Under the pieces are notes generated by a model, which did no database searches, was not told the DNA's origin, and was given only the letters and a program-made list of their open reading frames with translations. A program made the translations under genes and the position numbers. Below, one piece after another: positions 4,020-9,812 of a DNA stretch of 21,484 nt. Source of the DNA: a virus; the IMG/VR virus record IMGVR_UViG_3300037246_001650, positions 1-21,484 of that record; one strand, written 5' to 3'. Position 1 is the stretch's first letter, and each line of letters starts with the position of its first letter.

Positions 4020-4918
4020 CACTCCTCCCTCGGCGGACGCAAAGTCCGCTTCCCGTTTACGTCCGCCAGCCAGGTCCACTTTTCCCCAGCCGGTAGTACC
4101 CCTTCGTCAGCGTCGCCGATCGCAGCGCGGAACAGATTCTTGATCTCAGTAATCCGCGTCTCGTTGTCCTTGCTCGCCGCCTTGAGCTGCTTGTACTGCG
4201 CGTGGAGATCGACGAACTCTCCCGGCAGCGAGATCGACTCCCTGTAAGCGTTCGGGTAGATCCGAGCGAGCGCCTTCGCGGTAGCCGGCGAGGCATCGGG
4301 CAGCGGCGGCGGGCCTTTGTGGAGGACGCGATCCCAAAAGGATCCGCACTCAGGCACCAGCGTCTCTTCGATGAACTTGTCATCTCGCTCCACGTCGCGC
4401 CATTTGAACTCGCTGCCGCAGATCAGGACGGCCACTGAGGCCATCGGGGCGCCCGTGACGGCCATCTGATGCTGTAATTGGATGCCGACGTGCTGCGGGA
4501 CGCCATCGGACCAGCCAGCGCGGTCCTGGGTGTTTTTGACTTCGAGGGGGAGCCGGGGGACACAACCGCCACCGGCAACGTCCGCCTCCTGCCACCCGTC
4601 CAGCGTGCAGAGCATGAAGGGCCACCGCTTCGAGCGTAGGAGTTCCCCCGCGGGTTCGACCGGGCGCCCCACCTCGCCGTCGAACCACCCCAGAATCACC
4701 GGCTCCAGTATGCGCCCCCACTCCATGCGCTCGTCGAATTCGTCCACCGGAGGATCTTCGGAGATCTTGTCGGCGTACACCTCCATCGCGCTCGACCACC
4801 GCGGCCAATCGATGCCCAGCACCCACGGCGACTCACTCGCGCCGATGCCCGTCCGCCGAGCCAGCAGCCACTCGGGACGATTCGTGGAGTCGCAGACGAT
4901 TTCGTAATCGGCGGTCAT
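4019..4918 (-). CDS. YqaJ-type viral recombinase exonuclease (PD-(D/E)XK fold)
   Basis: A 299-aa nuclease predicted to resect double-stranded ends to make 3' tails for RecT. Family features in order are RRTGIGASES (about 21-30), the WGRILEP segment with Glu72, CTLDG with Asp107, LEVKN with Glu126 and Lys128, and QLQHQM at about 147-152. These match the YqaJ/lambda Red alpha catalytic core. The ATG at 4918 overlaps the upstream stop by 4 bases. Length is close to that of other family members. The nuclease plus RecT pair is the usual two-gene phage recombination module. Confidence 0.88.
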   Translation of the reverse strand: MTADYEIVCDSTNRPEWLLARRTGIGASESPWVLGIDWPRWSSAMEVYADKISEDPPVDEFDERMEWGRILEPVILGWFDGEVGRPVEPAGELLRSKRWPFMLCTLDGWQEADVAGGGCVPRLPLEVKNTQDRAGWSDGVPQHVGIQLQHQMAVTGAPMASVAVLICGSEFKWRDVERDDKFIEETLVPECGSFWDRVLHKGPPPLPDASPATAKALARIYPNAYRESISLPGEFVDLHAQYKQLKAASKDNETRITEIKNLFRAAIGDADEGVLPAGEKWTWLADVNGKRTLRPPREE

Positions 4919-5130
4919 TCGGGAGCCCCGAGTATCTTGCGCATCCGGTCATCGGCTTCCCCCTCCGCGCGCTCTCGGATGTCCGCAACGAGATGGTCGA
5001 GCGCGTCCGACAACGCTTCCCCTATTCCGCAGCGCACGTTTTCCTCGTTGTCGTCGATGCGTAAAACCACGCAAAACATCCCGCCCGGAATATTATCGAC
5101 GAGCGACACTTCAAGAATCGGCAATCTCAT
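4915..5130 (-). CDS. Hypothetical small early protein
   Basis: A 71-aa acidic protein (beta-like N-terminus LPILEVSLVD, then a helix EALSDALDHLVADIRERAEG). The ATG at 5130 has AGGAG six bases upstream. It overlaps the start of the exonuclease gene by 4 bases and is probably translationally coupled to it. No known domain. Confidence 0.65.
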   Translation of the reverse strand: MRLPILEVSLVDNIPGGMFCVVLRIDDNEENVRCGIGEALSDALDHLVADIRERAEGEADDRMRKILGAPE

Positions 5131-5220
5131 TTTTTCTCCTAAGGTGCGGGGCGCCCCGGCGATCTTCCATCAACCGGGGAACCCCTGGCCGCCCCTGTAC
5201 CATGTCCAGCCTTCACCCTT

Positions 5221-5304
5221 TCACGGTTCAGGCTGAGCCCCATTCAGGACAGCCGACCGGAACTTCCGGCACAGCGTATATCGTTTCGCGCGCGGGTCAC
5301 TCAT
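5221..5304 (-). CDS. Possible 27-aa ORF with in-frame UGA and 15-codon extension
   Basis: An ATG at 5304 lies in an ATGAGTGA overlap with the end of the 59-aa gene, the same 8-base junction seen elsewhere in this operon. It reads 27 basic residues to a TGA at 5221-5223. Past the stop the same frame stays open for 15 more codons (KGEGWTWYRGGQGFPG-type composition) to a TGA at 5170-5172. The ribosome binding site is weak. It may be a leader peptide, a decayed gene or noncoding. The stretch 5131-5220 has GC-rich inverted repeats, including GGGGCGCCCC at 5148-5157. Confidence 0.3.
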   Translation of the reverse strand: MSDPRAKRYTLCRKFRSAVLNGAQPEP

Positions 5305-5476
5305 TTTTCTCAATGGAGAAATCTGGGACTAGACCGCGCTCGTCAAATTCCGATAGCAGTTGTCGGTAAAGCTGGTCGCGATCCTCTTCCGAGATGTCCG
5401 GGAAGCCAACAAGGGCCTCGTCGAGCTTCTGGTTAATTGCGCTGCTAAGTGAGTTCGGAACCACCACGAATGTCAC
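5297..5476 (-). CDS. Hypothetical 59-aa early protein
   Basis: A short gene from a GTG at 5476, overlapping the upstream stop by 4 bases (GTGA), with GGGAGGGGAG just before it. The product begins TFVVVPNSLSSAINQKLDEAL and ends with an acidic helix (DISEEDRDQLYRQLLSEFDE). Amphipathic helices, the overlap at both ends and the strong ribosome binding site support a real gene. No family is recognised. Confidence 0.65.
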   Translation of the reverse strand: MTFVVVPNSLSSAINQKLDEALVGFPDISEEDRDQLYRQLLSEFDERGLVPDFSIEKNE

Positions 5477-5631
5477 GATCTCCCCTCCCGCGCGACCCTC
5501 TCCGCGCCTTGGTTATATGTTTCCGGTTTCGGCTTGCGCATGATCAGATAGGTAAAAAGCGAGCCGATACCGACACCGGCTGCGAAGGCTAACCATTGGA
5601 GCACGCCGGGGTCAGGCATCGGGTTTGCCAT
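5473..5631 (-). CDS. Small single-span membrane protein
   Basis: A 52-aa protein with one membrane segment (VLQWLAFAAGVGIGSLFTYLIM) and a basic, polar C-terminus (RKPKPETYNQGAERVAREG). The frame is open to 5763, but that part lies inside the upstream gene. ATGs at 5631 and 5619 are the plausible starts. The second gives an 8-base ATGCCTGA overlap like other junctions here. Neither has a strong ribosome binding site. Inner-membrane location predicted; function unknown. Confidence 0.55.
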   Translation of the reverse strand: MANPMPDPGVLQWLAFAAGVGIGSLFTYLIMRKPKPETYNQGAERVAREGRS

Positions 5632-6298
5632 CGAGGGCGGTACGCGCGATTGTGCTGCACTCATCACGTTCCCCTTGGTATTTGAGTCCGGCGATCCCGG
5701 CCAACGCCTTCCGCAGGTGATCGTTCTTAGTCTTGAGCTGTTCGATTCTATCTTGTAGCCCATCTAGCACATTAAGATCTTCCCATTTCACTCCAGCTTC
5801 ATCATAAAATGCTCTGAGCTTCTCGATCTCGGTGCGTAAGGCTGACATCGGATGATCTGGACATTCAGCGATGTGCGCCCTCAATGCTTCCTGCATCGAC
5901 GGAGTGGCTCCATCCTCCACAAGGGTCGCAGCGTGCTCATCGTCCGGTCCGTAGCGATGCCCGCAATAGACACAGTTTATATACATGCCGGCTTGACAAT
6001 CTCTAATCCAGTTGCGCAAACCCTCCTCGGTGGCGGAGCATTCGAGAAGTTCGCGTTTCAAATCCTCGATCTCGGTGTCGCGGGCGGTAATGGTCTCCAG
6101 CATATCCGGCGCGGTCACGATCAACTGCGCGTTTGCAAGCGCGGTCTCTTCGTCGTCAGCACCTTTCTCTCGATATTGATATGTCTCGCAAACATGTTCT
6201 TGGGTTGCGACTGACCTAATCAGTCGGTCACCGCGCTGGTCGCCAGAACCAGATCCAGGCGCGATTATTTCCCACGGACCCGATGTGTGCTTGCCCAT
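5612..6298 (-). CDS. Ead/Ea22-like phage early protein with zinc-binding motif
   Basis: A 228-aa protein. The N-terminal segment HTSGPWEIIAPG, followed by ALANAQLIVTAPDMLETI, is a widespread phage early-protein motif (HTPGPW...NARLIAAAPDLL in relatives I know). Residues about 110-150 hold CVYCGHRYGPDDEH and AHIAECPDHP, a likely CxxC...HxxxC zinc site. The C-terminal third is coiled-coil-like (QDRIEQLKTKNDHLRKALAGI) and ends like the 1962-2354 product. Such genes are variable accessory cargo of phage early operons with no assigned biochemical activity. Confidence 0.65.
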   Translation of the reverse strand: MGKHTSGPWEIIAPGSGSGDQRGDRLIRSVATQEHVCETYQYREKGADDEETALANAQLIVTAPDMLETITARDTEIEDLKRELLECSATEEGLRNWIRDCQAGMYINCVYCGHRYGPDDEHAATLVEDGATPSMQEALRAHIAECPDHPMSALRTEIEKLRAFYDEAGVKWEDLNVLDGLQDRIEQLKTKNDHLRKALAGIAGLKYQGERDECSTIARTALDGKPDA

Positions 6299-7788: not shown

Positions 7789-7970
7789 TGGCACTCTGCC
7801 TCAACTGCCAGCACGACGAGAATGATCACCACGGCTCCGGCCGTTGGGAGACGATCTGGGTCTGCACGGGTGGCCGCGGAACGATGCTCAAGCCGGTGTG
7901 CATGTGCTCGGCGCCGGAGTTTGAACGGGTGGAAGAGGAGTCTGAAAAGATGGAGGATCAATCACCATGA
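7788..7970 (+). CDS. Small cysteine-rich protein, paralogue of 2827-3024
   Basis: A 60-aa protein from a GTG at 7788, sharing one base with the preceding TAG. It has CLNCQHDENDHH, then a Cys and CMC, matching the C-x2-C-x-H-x4-H-...-C-...-C-x-C pattern of the 2827-3024 product. The C-terminal tail is acidic. The ATGA junction at 7967-7970 couples it to the next gene. Confidence 0.65.
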   Translation: MALCLNCQHDENDHHGSGRWETIWVCTGGRGTMLKPVCMCSAPEFERVEEESEKMEDQSP

Positions 7971-8461
7971 GAGAAACCAACCGATTGAACCGAATCGCAG
8001 CGGAATGCCTCCGCGAGTCAGATGGCGACTGGGAGGCCGCGGCATTGGCAATGCGAAAGCAAATCGACAGCAAGCCGAGACTTCGCACCGAGCTTATGAA
8101 GCCGCTGATCGCGGGCGCAATCTGGGATCGGATCCGTTTCGCAGCGCATGAGGATCGCAAGAAATGTCTCCGGCCCGACGCGGGCGAGGACAACACCGAT
8201 GGGCTTGAGGCGATGGCGCGGCGGACTCTGCTGGACTTCCAGCTCCGGGGCGGCACGCGGCTCGGTGATGCCACGCGGCCCGAGGTCACAGAGGCGGCTG
8301 ACTGGTACGGCACTCTTGCGCGGACGAACGGTGCTAACGCAGCGTGGCTCAAGTCGGTTGCGAGGGCATTGCCCGACGATGAGAAGCTGGTCTCGGACGT
8401 GCTGACCGAAGATCAGGCGCGAAGGCTGCGGACCAGGGCTGAGAAGAGTTCAACCCGATGA
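7967..8461 (+). CDS. Hypothetical protein upstream of the RNA array
   Basis: A 164-aa, mostly helical protein with balanced charge (LNRIAAECLRESDGDWEAAALAMRKQID...). No catalytic motif is seen. Its last three codons and stop lie in the 5' arm of the first hairpin of the RNA array. Translation to the end would therefore meet the array's first stem, which could couple translation to RNA folding. The start shares an ATGA with the previous gene. Confidence 0.65.
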   Translation: MRETNRLNRIAAECLRESDGDWEAAALAMRKQIDSKPRLRTELMKPLIAGAIWDRIRFAAHEDRKKCLRPDAGEDNTDGLEAMARRTLLDFQLRGGTRLGDATRPEVTEAADWYGTLARTNGANAAWLKSVARALPDDEKLVSDVLTEDQARRLRTRAEKSSTR

Positions 8462-8512
8462 GGCGGGCCACCCACGTGATGTCTACCAGGGGCGACGTGC
8501 TCGCTTCGTCGG
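8455..8512 (+). repeat. Array hairpin 1
   Basis: Arms 8455-8468 and 8499-8512 (14 pairs, G-U at 8459/8508, 8462/8505 and 8466/8501). Bulged C8469, closing A8470-U8498, loop 8471-8497. Loop core TGTCTACCA at 8480-8488 reads with T10 and G11. GTTCAA precedes it at 8448-8453. Confidence 0.85.
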
Positions 8513-8523
8513 TCTCGTTTCAA

Positions 8524-8581
8524 CCGATGGCTGGGGCCAGTAGCGTGGTGAAGCCCAGTAGCAGGATGCCCCGGCCGTCGG
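8524..8581 (+). repeat. Array hairpin 2
   Basis: Arms 8524-8537 and 8568-8581 (14 pairs, G-U at 8528/8577 and 8532/8573). Bulged C8538, closing A8539-U8567, loop 8540-8566, core TGAAGCCCA. Linker to hairpin 1 is TCTCGTTTCAA. Confidence 0.88.
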
Positions 8582-8590
8582 AATTTCAAC

Positions 8591-8646
8591 GAGTGGCGCG
8601 GGCCAGTGAGACACTGCCTACCGCGCGAAAAGTGCCCGTGCCGCTC
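8591..8646 (+). repeat. Array hairpin 3
   Basis: Arms 8591-8603 and 8634-8646 (13 pairs, G-U at 8594/8643 and 8598/8639). Bulged C8604, closing A8605-U8633, loop 8606-8632, core TGCCTACCG. Linker AATTTCAAC. An alternative fold (8596-8601 with 8621-8626) is possible. Confidence 0.85.
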
Positions 8647-8654
8647 TCGTTTCA

Positions 8655-8703
8655 AGGCTGGGCCAAACAACTCGCGACGCCCACCTATCCCCTGCCCACG
8701 CCT
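8655..8703 (+). repeat. Array hairpin 4
   Basis: Arms 8655-8663 and 8694-8703 (9 pairs with C8699 unpaired). Bulged C8664, closing A8665-U8693, loop 8666-8692, core CGACGCCCA. This is the shortest stem and the only core starting with C. Confidence 0.78.
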
Positions 8704-8705
8704 AT

Positions 8706-8765
8706 GCACCCGGTCGAGTCCGGTGAGCGCCTGTTACCCAGTAGAGGGCTGCCTCGATCGGGTGC
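8706..8765 (+). repeat. Array hairpin 5
   Basis: Arms 8706-8718 and 8753-8765 (13 pairs, G-U at 8713/8758), a U8719/C8752 mismatch, then C8720-G8751. Bulged C8721, closing G8722-U8750, loop 8723-8749, core TGTTACCCA. Confidence 0.82.
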
Positions 8766-8766
8766 T

Positions 8767-8835
8767 AGCTTTAATCAACCCGCGGACCAAAGTGACCTTG
8801 ACGCCCATCACTGTGGTGTCCGCGGGTTGAAAGCT
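8767..8835 (+). repeat. Array hairpin 6
   Basis: Inner arms 8776-8787 and 8818-8829 are 12 perfect pairs. AGCTTT (8767-8772) and AAAGCT (8830-8835) add 6 more past an AAT bulge. Bulged C8788, closing A8789-U8817, loop 8790-8816, core TGACGCCCA. AGTGA and TCACT inside the loop can pair. Confidence 0.88.
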
Positions 8836-8884
8836 GTTGCGGGCCACACCCAGGGTGCCACCCATCGTCATGGTGCTCGCAGCG
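8835..8884 (+). repeat. Array hairpin 7
   Basis: Arms 8835-8844 and 8875-8884 (10 pairs, G-U at 8835/8884, 8837/8882 and 8842/8877). Bulged C8845, closing A8846-U8874, loop 8847-8873, core TGCCACCCA. It ends just before the ribosome binding site of the IS110-like gene. Confidence 0.8.
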
Positions 8885-8902
8885 CCGGAGGAGGTAGAGC
8901 AA

Positions 8903-9700
8903 ATGTCTAGCGCAGGTTCTAACTCCTCCGGCATCTACAATGGCCTGCTTACCGAACTCAAGGAAACCGTCCGTCGACGGGATGATCTAATCCGGCCGGA
9001 GGTGCGGCTAACGCTTCAGATCAAGTCGATCTGTCGGCGGGTCTGTAGCAGACAATGTCCTGATTTTGATACCGATGCCAAGCGCTATGCCTGGATCAAA
9101 AAAGAAGGCCGACTTCTTTACACAGCAATCATGAAAGGCCAGCAACACGAGATGCTGAGCGTGGGCGCTCCAGCGTGTTTCGTGTTGCTCCAGGTTCGCG
9201 CGCAGATCCACAGCGAGATCCTGCCCGTCGAGCGTAGGCTGAAGGAGCTCGCCCAGAAGCTGCCGGTCTGGGATTGGTGGGATTCGGTCCACGGGCTGGG
9301 CGCGCTTGGGCTGGCAGCGATCGTTGCAGAGACGGGCGATCTCTCGAACTATGCCAACCCCGGCAAAGTCTGGAAGCGCATGGGCGTTGCGGTCATCAAC
9401 GGAGAGCGGCAGAGGAAGAAGAAGGGCGCCGAGGCGCTCGAGCACGGATACTCGCCGCGCCGGCGTAGCACAATCTGGGTTGTCTCGGATAGCCTGCTGA
9501 AGAAGCCCAATGAATATAAAGAGCTGTATGACTGGCGTAAGGCCGAACAGGCAGAGAAGTGGCCGGAGCGCAAGAAGGGCCACCTCCACAACGATGCTCG
9601 GCGCTATGTCGGGAAGCGGCTACTGAAGCACCTCTGGCGGGCTTGGCGCCGTACATGTAGTGACGACCAGATTTGCTCTGCGCCGGGCTCGCCAGAATGA
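8903..9700 (+). CDS. IS110/IS116/IS902-type transposase C-terminal domain protein, domesticated in phage
   Basis: A 265-aa protein from an ATG at 8903 with GGAGGAGGT seven bases upstream. Frames open to a TTG at 8837 run into the hairpin array and are rejected. Residues about 127-245 match the IS110 C-terminal (Transposase_20) domain: VHGLGALGLAAIVAETGDLSNY, WKRMGVAVINGERQ, HGYSPRRRSTIW, RRYVGKRLLKHLWRAW. The N-terminal 120 residues are helical and basic and show no RuvC-like DEDD motif. The conserved Ser-Gly of active IS110 enzymes seems replaced by Asn166-Gly167. No flanking insertion-sequence ends are seen. It probably binds nucleic acid rather than catalysing transposition. The adjacent hairpin array is the obvious candidate partner. 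Confidence 0.75.
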   Translation: MSSAGSNSSGIYNGLLTELKETVRRRDDLIRPEVRLTLQIKSICRRVCSRQCPDFDTDAKRYAWIKKEGRLLYTAIMKGQQHEMLSVGAPACFVLLQVRAQIHSEILPVERRLKELAQKLPVWDWWDSVHGLGALGLAAIVAETGDLSNYANPGKVWKRMGVAVINGERQRKKKGAEALEHGYSPRRRSTIWVVSDSLLKKPNEYKELYDWRKAEQAEKWPERKKGHLHNDARRYVGKRLLKHLWRAWRRTCSDDQICSAPGSPE

Positions 9701-9732: not shown

Positions 9733-9812
9733 CCGTCAGCCAGCGCACCCCACCAACCGCACCTTCCAACCCGCGCTGGCTGGCGGTAGGCGGCGGTGGG
9801 GGGCGCACCACC
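9733..9812 (+). other. Structured intergenic RNA element, possible pseudoknot
   Basis: The 139-base gap between the IS110-like and ASCH-like genes holds a 14-pair stem (9733-9746 with 9773-9786, one U-G pair) with a 26-nt, C- and A-rich loop. CCCCACC in the loop (9748-9754) is complementary to GGTGGGG at 9795-9801, so an H-type pseudoknot can form. It resembles the upstream hairpins in size but lacks the bulged C and the TGNNNMCCA core. AGGAG at 9827-9831 serves the next gene. Confidence 0.55.

What the first reader, a model, noticed from the sequence alone, without database searches (positions are those of the whole stretch)
8455..8884. Seven tandem RNA hairpins with invariant 27-nt loops, a conserved bulged C and a 9-9-9 loop layout
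The whole gap between two genes folds as seven consecutive hairpins: 8455-8512, 8524-8581, 8591-8646, 8655-8703, 8706-8765, 8767-8835 and 8835-8884. Every unit has a C-G pair, a 5' bulged C, an A-U closing pair (G-U in unit 5) and a loop of exactly 27 nt. Aligned loops show 9 variable nt, a conserved 9-nt core (TGNNNMCCA; G11, C16, C17 in all) and 9 variable nt. Stems vary in sequence while staying paired. I know of no described element with this layout. It looks like an array of two-part guides.
Basis: seen in the sequence. Interest (0 to 1): 0.97.

Follow-up and report, generated by a model that had tools for sequence, protein, structure and literature searches.

The report
Phage stem-loop TIGR guide array, TasA
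The seven hairpins are guide RNAs of a recently described RNA-guided DNA-targeting system (TIGR-Tas) carried by phages; the class is known, but relatives show two features I found no description of: a conserved partner gene, and guide arrays lying inside the reading frame of the protein they guide.

Summary
It is not an undescribed element. The bulged C, the A-U and C-G pairs and the TG...CCA core are the box C (CCA) and box D (UG) motifs of tigRNAs. The downstream gene (8903-9700) encodes TasA, a solo Nop-domain protein (PDB TasR 9MTY, E=2e-15; Foldseek top hits TasR and TasH). This is a stem-loop TIGR array as reported by Faure et al. 2025 (PMC12045711). I fetched 78 phage loci and 13 genome loci. 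Near tas, 27-nt units number 393 on the sense strand versus 41 on the antisense. Two features go beyond that paper's main text: (1) the gene before the array (7967-8461) is a conserved, unnamed partner in about 65 of 85 loci, and no other tested window neighbour is; (2) in about a third of loci the array lies in frame inside the tas coding sequence, often starting at the partner's stop codon. Guides match neither their own phage nor six lysogenic hosts, and are not shared between phages. Natural targets, translation of arrays and the partner's role remain untested.

The parts
7967..8461 (+). Conserved partner gene (164 aa, all-helical model, no known family), directly upstream of the array
   Evidence: Homologues next to tas in 65-67 of 85 loci, the only conserved neighbour among those tested; one copy per lysogen genome, beside tas; no Pfam, PHROG or NCBIfam family
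8455..8512 (+). Stem-loop TIGR unit 1: spacer A CCCACGTGA, core TGTCTACCA, spacer B GGGGCGACG
8524..8581 (+). Unit 2: GTAGCGTGG / TGAAGCCCA / GTAGCAGGA
8591..8646 (+). Unit 3: GTGAGACAC / TGCCTACCG / CGCGAAAAG
8655..8703 (+). Unit 4 (weak, bulged stem; contiguous pairs 8659-8698): AACAACTCG / CGACGCCCA / CCTATCCCC
8706..8765 (+). Unit 5: GTGAGCGCC / TGTTACCCA / GTAGAGGGC (box C is CCG)
8775..8830 (+). Unit 6: AAGTGACCT / TGACGCCCA / TCACTGTGG
8835..8884 (+). Unit 7: CACCCAGGG / TGCCACCCA / TCGTCATGG
8458..8910 (+). Open frame (150 codons) over the whole array; ATGA overlap with partner stop, ends inside the tasA start region; possibly translated
   Evidence: Sequence; open across the array, chance 0.023 for this frame, 0.068 for any frame
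8884..8932 (+). Hairpin enclosing the tasA Shine-Dalgarno (8887-8894), start codon (8903) and the array frame's stop
   Evidence: -30 kcal/mol, z -5.8; not seen in the other 45 loci tested
8903..9700 (+). tasA: 265-aa solo Nop/IS110-C-terminal-type protein, no nuclease domain
   Evidence: PF02371; TasR 9MTY E=2.1e-15; AlphaFold pLDDT 93.7; Foldseek TasR and TasH top
9633..9696 (+). Unit 8, inside the 3' end of the tasA coding sequence: TACATGTAG / TGACGACCA / GATTTGCTC, 17-bp stem

Best explanation
The feature is a stem-loop TIGR array with its TasA effector and a conserved partner gene, on a tailed-phage contig. Each hairpin is inferred to be cut out as one guide RNA. A TasA dimer would bind its two box C/D sites: edge CCA with UG, and the central UG...CCA. 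The two 9-nt spacers would pair with opposite strands of an approximately 18-bp target laid out as 5'-A + rc(B). TasA has no nuclease, so it would act by binding, bending or blocking DNA. The likely targets are competing mobile elements rather than its own phage or its lysogenic host. Shown here: the array, its conservation, the box motifs, the Tas fold and the partner's linkage. Shown elsewhere for relatives (PMC12045711): processing of stem-loop units by pulldown; targeting by TasR and TasH. Inferred here: processing, binding and targets for this locus. A sub-claim: in many relatives the array is part of the tas mRNA's reading frame, so one transcript would serve as message and guide precursor. 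The confidence given is for identity as a stem-loop TIGR-TasA system; for action on competing mobile elements it is about 0.5.
For: Box and spacer anatomy identical to the published stem-loop units. TasA identity: PF02371, 9MTY TasR E=2.1e-15, Foldseek TasR 1e-6, TasH, then IS621/ISCro4. Homologues: 78 IMG/VR loci, 13 genome loci. CCA[L]TG hairpins: L=27 gives 122 sense vs 1 antisense hits. Stem-free motif near tas 393 sense vs 41 antisense; stem positions 1-8 paired 69-86% vs mostly 30-50% in antisense and distant controls, with all four Watson-Crick types; edge and inner D letters agree CC 149 and TT 119 vs 66 mixed C/T. A relative, Microcystis phage Mvi-JY20, carries a dual-repeat TIGR array; Rhizobium phage RHph_X2_25 carries stem-loop units. 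Guides hypervariable: none shared, none above chance on own contig or in own lysogen host. Partner linkage. In-frame arrays: tas frame open upstream, median 102 codons vs 34 and 21; start at partner stop open to the Tas domain in 33 of 60 loci vs 5 and 2 in other frames; unit phase 13/85/135, uniform outside the frame.
Against: No expression data for this locus. No natural target found: exact target searches of six window guides in IMG/VR gave 0-3 hits each, in mostly unrelated genes, so 'competing elements' is by exclusion only. The target rule is extrapolated from TasR and TasH to a stem-loop TasA. In-frame arrays show weak codon-position bias (GC 0.64/0.57/0.62 vs 0.65/0.45/0.74 in the Tas domain), and unit phases were not controlled for stop avoidance, so translation is indicated by frame, start-site and phase statistics rather than by protein conservation. 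In the window the array frame is separate from tasA and could be open by chance.
Confidence: 0.93

Rival explanations
1. The hairpins are the bridge RNA or an equivalent of an IS110-like transposable element, and the gene is a transposase remnant.
For: The protein matches PF02371, and PHROG names the family transposase. Bridge RNA loops also carry two guide halves.
Against: No DEDD catalytic domain: the gene is solo Nop-type with TasR and TasH as better matches than IS621/ISCro4. Seven or eight independent units per locus with different guides, next to a stable partner gene in phages, is not an insertion sequence layout.
Confidence: 0.03
2. The region is simply protein-coding (frame 8458-8910), and the hairpins are incidental.
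For: The frame is open and coupled by ATGA to the upstream gene; many relatives have the array inside the tas frame.
Against: No protein homologue in any of the other 84 loci; 27-nt geometry and stem covariation are conserved whether or not units lie in frame.
Confidence: 0.02
3. The guides act on the phage's own genome, so TasA is a guide-programmed regulator of its own phage genes.
For: TasA lacks a nuclease; in RHph_X2_25 the gene lies between lysogeny regulators.
Against: 370 units against their own contigs: none with 16 or more of 18 matches, versus 1-3 in mispaired controls; full RHph_X2_25 genome negative. The window is a 21-kb fragment and flanks were limited to 10 kb, so distant sites in other phages are untested.
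Confidence: 0.12

Closest known systems
Stem-loop TIGR arrays with TasA (Faure et al. 2025, PMC12045711, e.g. Peromyscus gut contig)
   Same: Two short spacers flanked by CCA and UG boxes, variable palindromic stems, several units beside a nuclease-less Tas gene
   Different: Here the middle is a constant 9 nt and the loop exactly 27 nt; a conserved helical partner gene precedes the array; units lie inside the tas reading frame in many relatives. The partner and in-frame arrays are not in the main text; the supplement could not be read
Dual-repeat TIGR arrays with TasR, TasH or TasA
   Same: 9-nt spacers A and B, box C/D pairs, homologous Nop protein; Mvi-JY20 in the same protein family has one
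   Different: Edge repeats replaced by locus-specific stems
TasA-TasParB operons (PMC12045711, section on parB-like gene)
   Same: A small gene in operon with tasA, arrays sometimes between the two genes
   Different: Reported with dual-repeat arrays; the partner here has no sequence or fold match to ParB
IS110 bridge RNA recombinases
   Same: Nop-type RNA-binding domain and split guides with box C/D
   Different: No DEDD domain, many single-loop units instead of one two-loop RNA
TnpB with its guide RNA overlapping the gene (my knowledge, not tested)
   Same: Guide RNA overlapping the effector's coding sequence
   Different: Here many guide units, mostly at the 5' side of the frame

Membership tests
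TIGR-Tas (stem-loop type) | Adjacent Tas protein with Nop domain | tested here: met
   PDB 9MTY E=2.1e-15; Foldseek TasR and TasH top
TIGR-Tas (stem-loop type) | Two 8-12 nt spacers per unit flanked by box C (CCA) and box D (UG) | tested here: met
   9-nt spacers; G11, C16, C17 in all eight window units, box letters strongly conserved in relatives
TIGR-Tas (stem-loop type) | Variable but palindromic stems in place of edge repeats | tested here: met
   Stem pairing 69-86% at positions 1-8 vs mostly 30-50% in antisense and distant controls, with all pair types
TIGR-Tas (stem-loop type) | Array transcribed and processed into single-unit guides bound by Tas | not testable with these tools
   Needs RNA sequencing of Tas pulldown
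TIGR-Tas (stem-loop type) | Spacers A and B pair with opposite strands of a DNA target | tested here: inconclusive
   No target found in own phages, lysogen hosts or IMG/VR above chance
IS110 transposase | N-terminal DEDD catalytic domain | tested here: not met
   265-aa protein, only the C-terminal PF02371 region matches; all-helical N-terminal half in the model
TasParB partner | ParB-like domain | tested here: not met
   No match in Pfam, NCBIfam, PHROG or PDB fold search; TasParB itself was not available for direct comparison

The most novel reading that the evidence does not exclude
In this TasA lineage the guide array is co-encoded with protein: the partner gene, the array and tasA form one translated transcript, with guide hairpins inside the tas reading frame (N-terminal extension or C-terminus). 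Cutting out guides would destroy the message, so guide production and TasA synthesis would be mutually exclusive and self-limiting; the partner protein would be a dedicated third component (processing, loading or effector recruitment).
Probability: 0.35. Interest if true: 0.82.

Novelty: new variant of a known kind. Interest (0 to 1): 0.6.

Why it matters
It places the window in a recently discovered RNA-guided family whose natural role is unknown. It supplies what that field lacks: a sequenced, cultured temperate phage with such an array (Rhizobium phage RHph_X2_25, MW960032), named lysogens (Bosea, Magnetospirillum, Rhizobium, Shinella, Methylobacterium), about 370 guide pairs, and a partner gene that suggests the stem-loop systems are not single-protein. 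Guide arrays inside the effector's own reading frame would be an unusual economy of coding and a ready means of self-regulation, testable in the laboratory.

Tried and rejected
Rfam scan: nothing. tRNA or tmRNA: none. Protein-only search of IMG/VR with the single window protein found no close relative; the three-sequence alignment was needed. Plasmids: no homologue. Target search: own contigs, cross-contigs, full RHph_X2_25 genome, six lysogen genomes (contiguous 18-mers only), phage records with RHph guides, IMG/VR with six window guides: nothing above chance. Shared guides between loci: 36 near-matches against 38 in shuffles, so none. A hairpin at about 9735-9786 looked like a ninth unit by eye but lacks G11 and is not the favoured fold: not counted. 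The Shine-Dalgarno-enclosing hairpin is peculiar to the window. A first tree run failed at the display step; a FastTree run replaced it.

Full report
1. Observation. The seven hairpins are there, at the stated places. Each has the order stem - C - C - A/G - 9 nt - YG NNNN CCR (9 nt) - 9 nt - T - G - stem. In 1000 dinucleotide shuffles of the region no unit with a strong stem arose, against 6 observed; with the looser rule at most 1 arose, against 7 observed. A scan of the window finds one more unit, 9633-9696, with a 17-bp stem, lying inside the last codons of the downstream gene. The one antisense hit in the window is weak.

2. What it is. The gene at 8903-9700 is a 265-aa protein whose only Pfam match is the IS110 C-terminal family. 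By sequence its best solved relative is 9MTY (E=2.1e-15), which Faure et al. deposited as TIGR-TasR (PMC12045711). The AlphaFold model (pLDDT 93.7) finds TasR and TasH first, then IS621/ISCro4 recombinases, then Nop5/Prp31-type proteins at insignificant E-values. It has no nuclease domain: this is TasA. Box C is CCA and box D is UG; they pair as A-U and C-G with the middle C left out, which is the 'bulged C'. The central 'TGNNNMCCA' is the second box D/box C pair. The two variable 9-mers are spacers A and B. Stems vary because they replace edge repeats.

3. Conservation. An alignment of three phage proteins recovered 78 IMG/VR loci and, later, an enlarged alignment found 13 loci in named genomes, mostly Alphaproteobacteria. 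In 1.35 Mb, hairpins of the form CCA-loop-TG peak at loop length 27: 122 sense against 1 antisense, other lengths near background except smaller peaks at 31 and 33. With relaxed boxes the peak is 303 against 13 (stem score 9 or more), and the loop profile shows conservation at positions 10-18 only, strongest at 11, 16 and 17. A search by motif alone, without asking for a stem, gives 393 sense against 41 antisense sites near tas and 97 against 97 elsewhere. In the 393, stem positions 1-8 pair 69-86%, against mostly 30-50% in antisense and distant controls (slid versions reach 66-78% only at the G+C-rich positions 1-2), with G-C, C-G, A-T and T-A all common. Edge and inner box D letters agree (C-C or T-T) in 268 of 370 units. 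Rhizobium phage RHph_X2_25 has such units upstream, inside and downstream of its tas gene. Microcystis phage Mvi-JY20, a more distant member, has a classical dual-repeat TIGR array.

4. A conserved partner gene. The window gene 7967-8461, before the array, has homologues just upstream of the array/tas in 65-67 of 85 loci, on the same strand (downstream in one), while the other window neighbours tested are not conserved. Its presence goes with 27-nt arrays (53/6 against 8/15, Fisher p=1.3e-6; loci are related, so the p-value is indicative). In six lysogen genomes it occurs once, beside tas, and it is absent from the one whose tas lacks 27-nt units. It matches no family and no fold (model pLDDT 89, pTM 0.50). 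Matches of the profile to TPR designs rest on one helix pair. It is not recognisably the TasParB of Faure et al., though that protein could not be compared directly.

5. Arrays inside the reading frame. Upstream of the Tas domain the tas frame is open for a median of 102 codons, against 34 and 21 in the other frames; 17 loci reach 200 codons, against 0 and 2. Start codons with Shine-Dalgarno sequences often lie just before the first in-frame unit. In 33 of 60 loci with the partner upstream, a start codon within -20 to +9 nt of the partner's stop opens the tas frame to the Tas domain, against 5 and 2 in other frames. In-frame units sit in codon phases 13/85/135, whereas upstream units (55/47/43) and downstream units (18/17/18) are uniform. 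Part of that phase bias follows from stop avoidance, so it is supporting, not independent. In 31 of 58 upstream clusters the tas frame runs open through the cluster; any antisense frame does so in 25, mostly short clusters. The arrangement is scattered over the Tas tree (15 parsimony changes for 23 of 82 loci), so it has been gained or lost repeatedly. In the window the array lies in a separate frame, 8458-8910, coupled to the partner by ATGA and ending at the tasA start; by itself that could be chance. Unit 8 lies within the tasA coding sequence.

6. Targets. I inferred the target as A + 0-2 nt + rc(B) from the published strand rule and the 8-nt 3' overhang. Tested against own contigs (370 units), no site reached 16 of 18, while mispaired controls gave 1-3. 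Cross-contig, RHph_X2_25 complete genome and six lysogen genomes were equally negative; the lysogen test covers ungapped sites only. Six window guides in IMG/VR gave 0, 0, 1, 3, 0 and 3 exact sites, in unrelated genes apart from one homologous pair. Guides are not shared between loci. So the guides do not point at the phage itself or at its resident host; other mobile elements are the remaining natural candidate, unproven.

7. Mechanism. Most likely: a transcript runs from the partner gene through tasA; hairpins are released as single guides (shown for a relative by pulldown in PMC12045711, cut sites in linkers); a TasA dimer holds a guide and binds an approximately 18-bp site with the two spacers on opposite strands, bending or blocking it. 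Inference: where the array is in the tas frame, releasing guides cuts the message, limiting TasA. In the window a strong hairpin (8884-8932, -30 kcal/mol) hides the tasA ribosome site and start, which ribosomes crossing the array frame could open; it is not seen in relatives.

8. Novelty. The array class is known. The partner family and the in-frame arrays are not in the main text of the only primary paper held; its supplement could not be read, and subscription literature is outside the library. Hence 'new variant of a known kind', with that caveat.

Noticed in passing
window 8884-8932: Strong hairpin enclosing the Shine-Dalgarno and start codon of tasA; looks like a translational switch, not seen in 45 relatives tested.
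   Followed up: partly
L002 (MW960032) 4300-6040: Isolated temperate Rhizobium phage RHph_X2_25 has TIGR units upstream, in the N-terminal coding part and downstream of tas, between a C-type repressor and an XRE regulator; annotated only as hypothetical proteins.
   Followed up: partly
L003 (PP438412) 5550-5900: Microcystis phage Mvi-JY20 carries an unannotated dual-repeat TIGR array (about TATGCGAGCC / ACGAAACCC repeats, 9-nt spacers) after its tas gene, ending in a terminator-like hairpin.
   Followed up: no
L052, L055, L059, L037, L060: Related tas loci with hairpin loops of 31-33 or 36 nt instead of 27, in a clade without the partner gene.
   Followed up: no
window 9735-9786: A 14-bp inverted repeat with a 26-nt loop just after tasA; may be a decayed unit, but lacks G11 and is not the favoured fold.
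   Followed up: partly
L028 4193-4791, L031 8672-9267: Arrays with nearly strictly alternating 55/56-nt unit spacing over 10-11 units, all in the tas frame.
   Followed up: no
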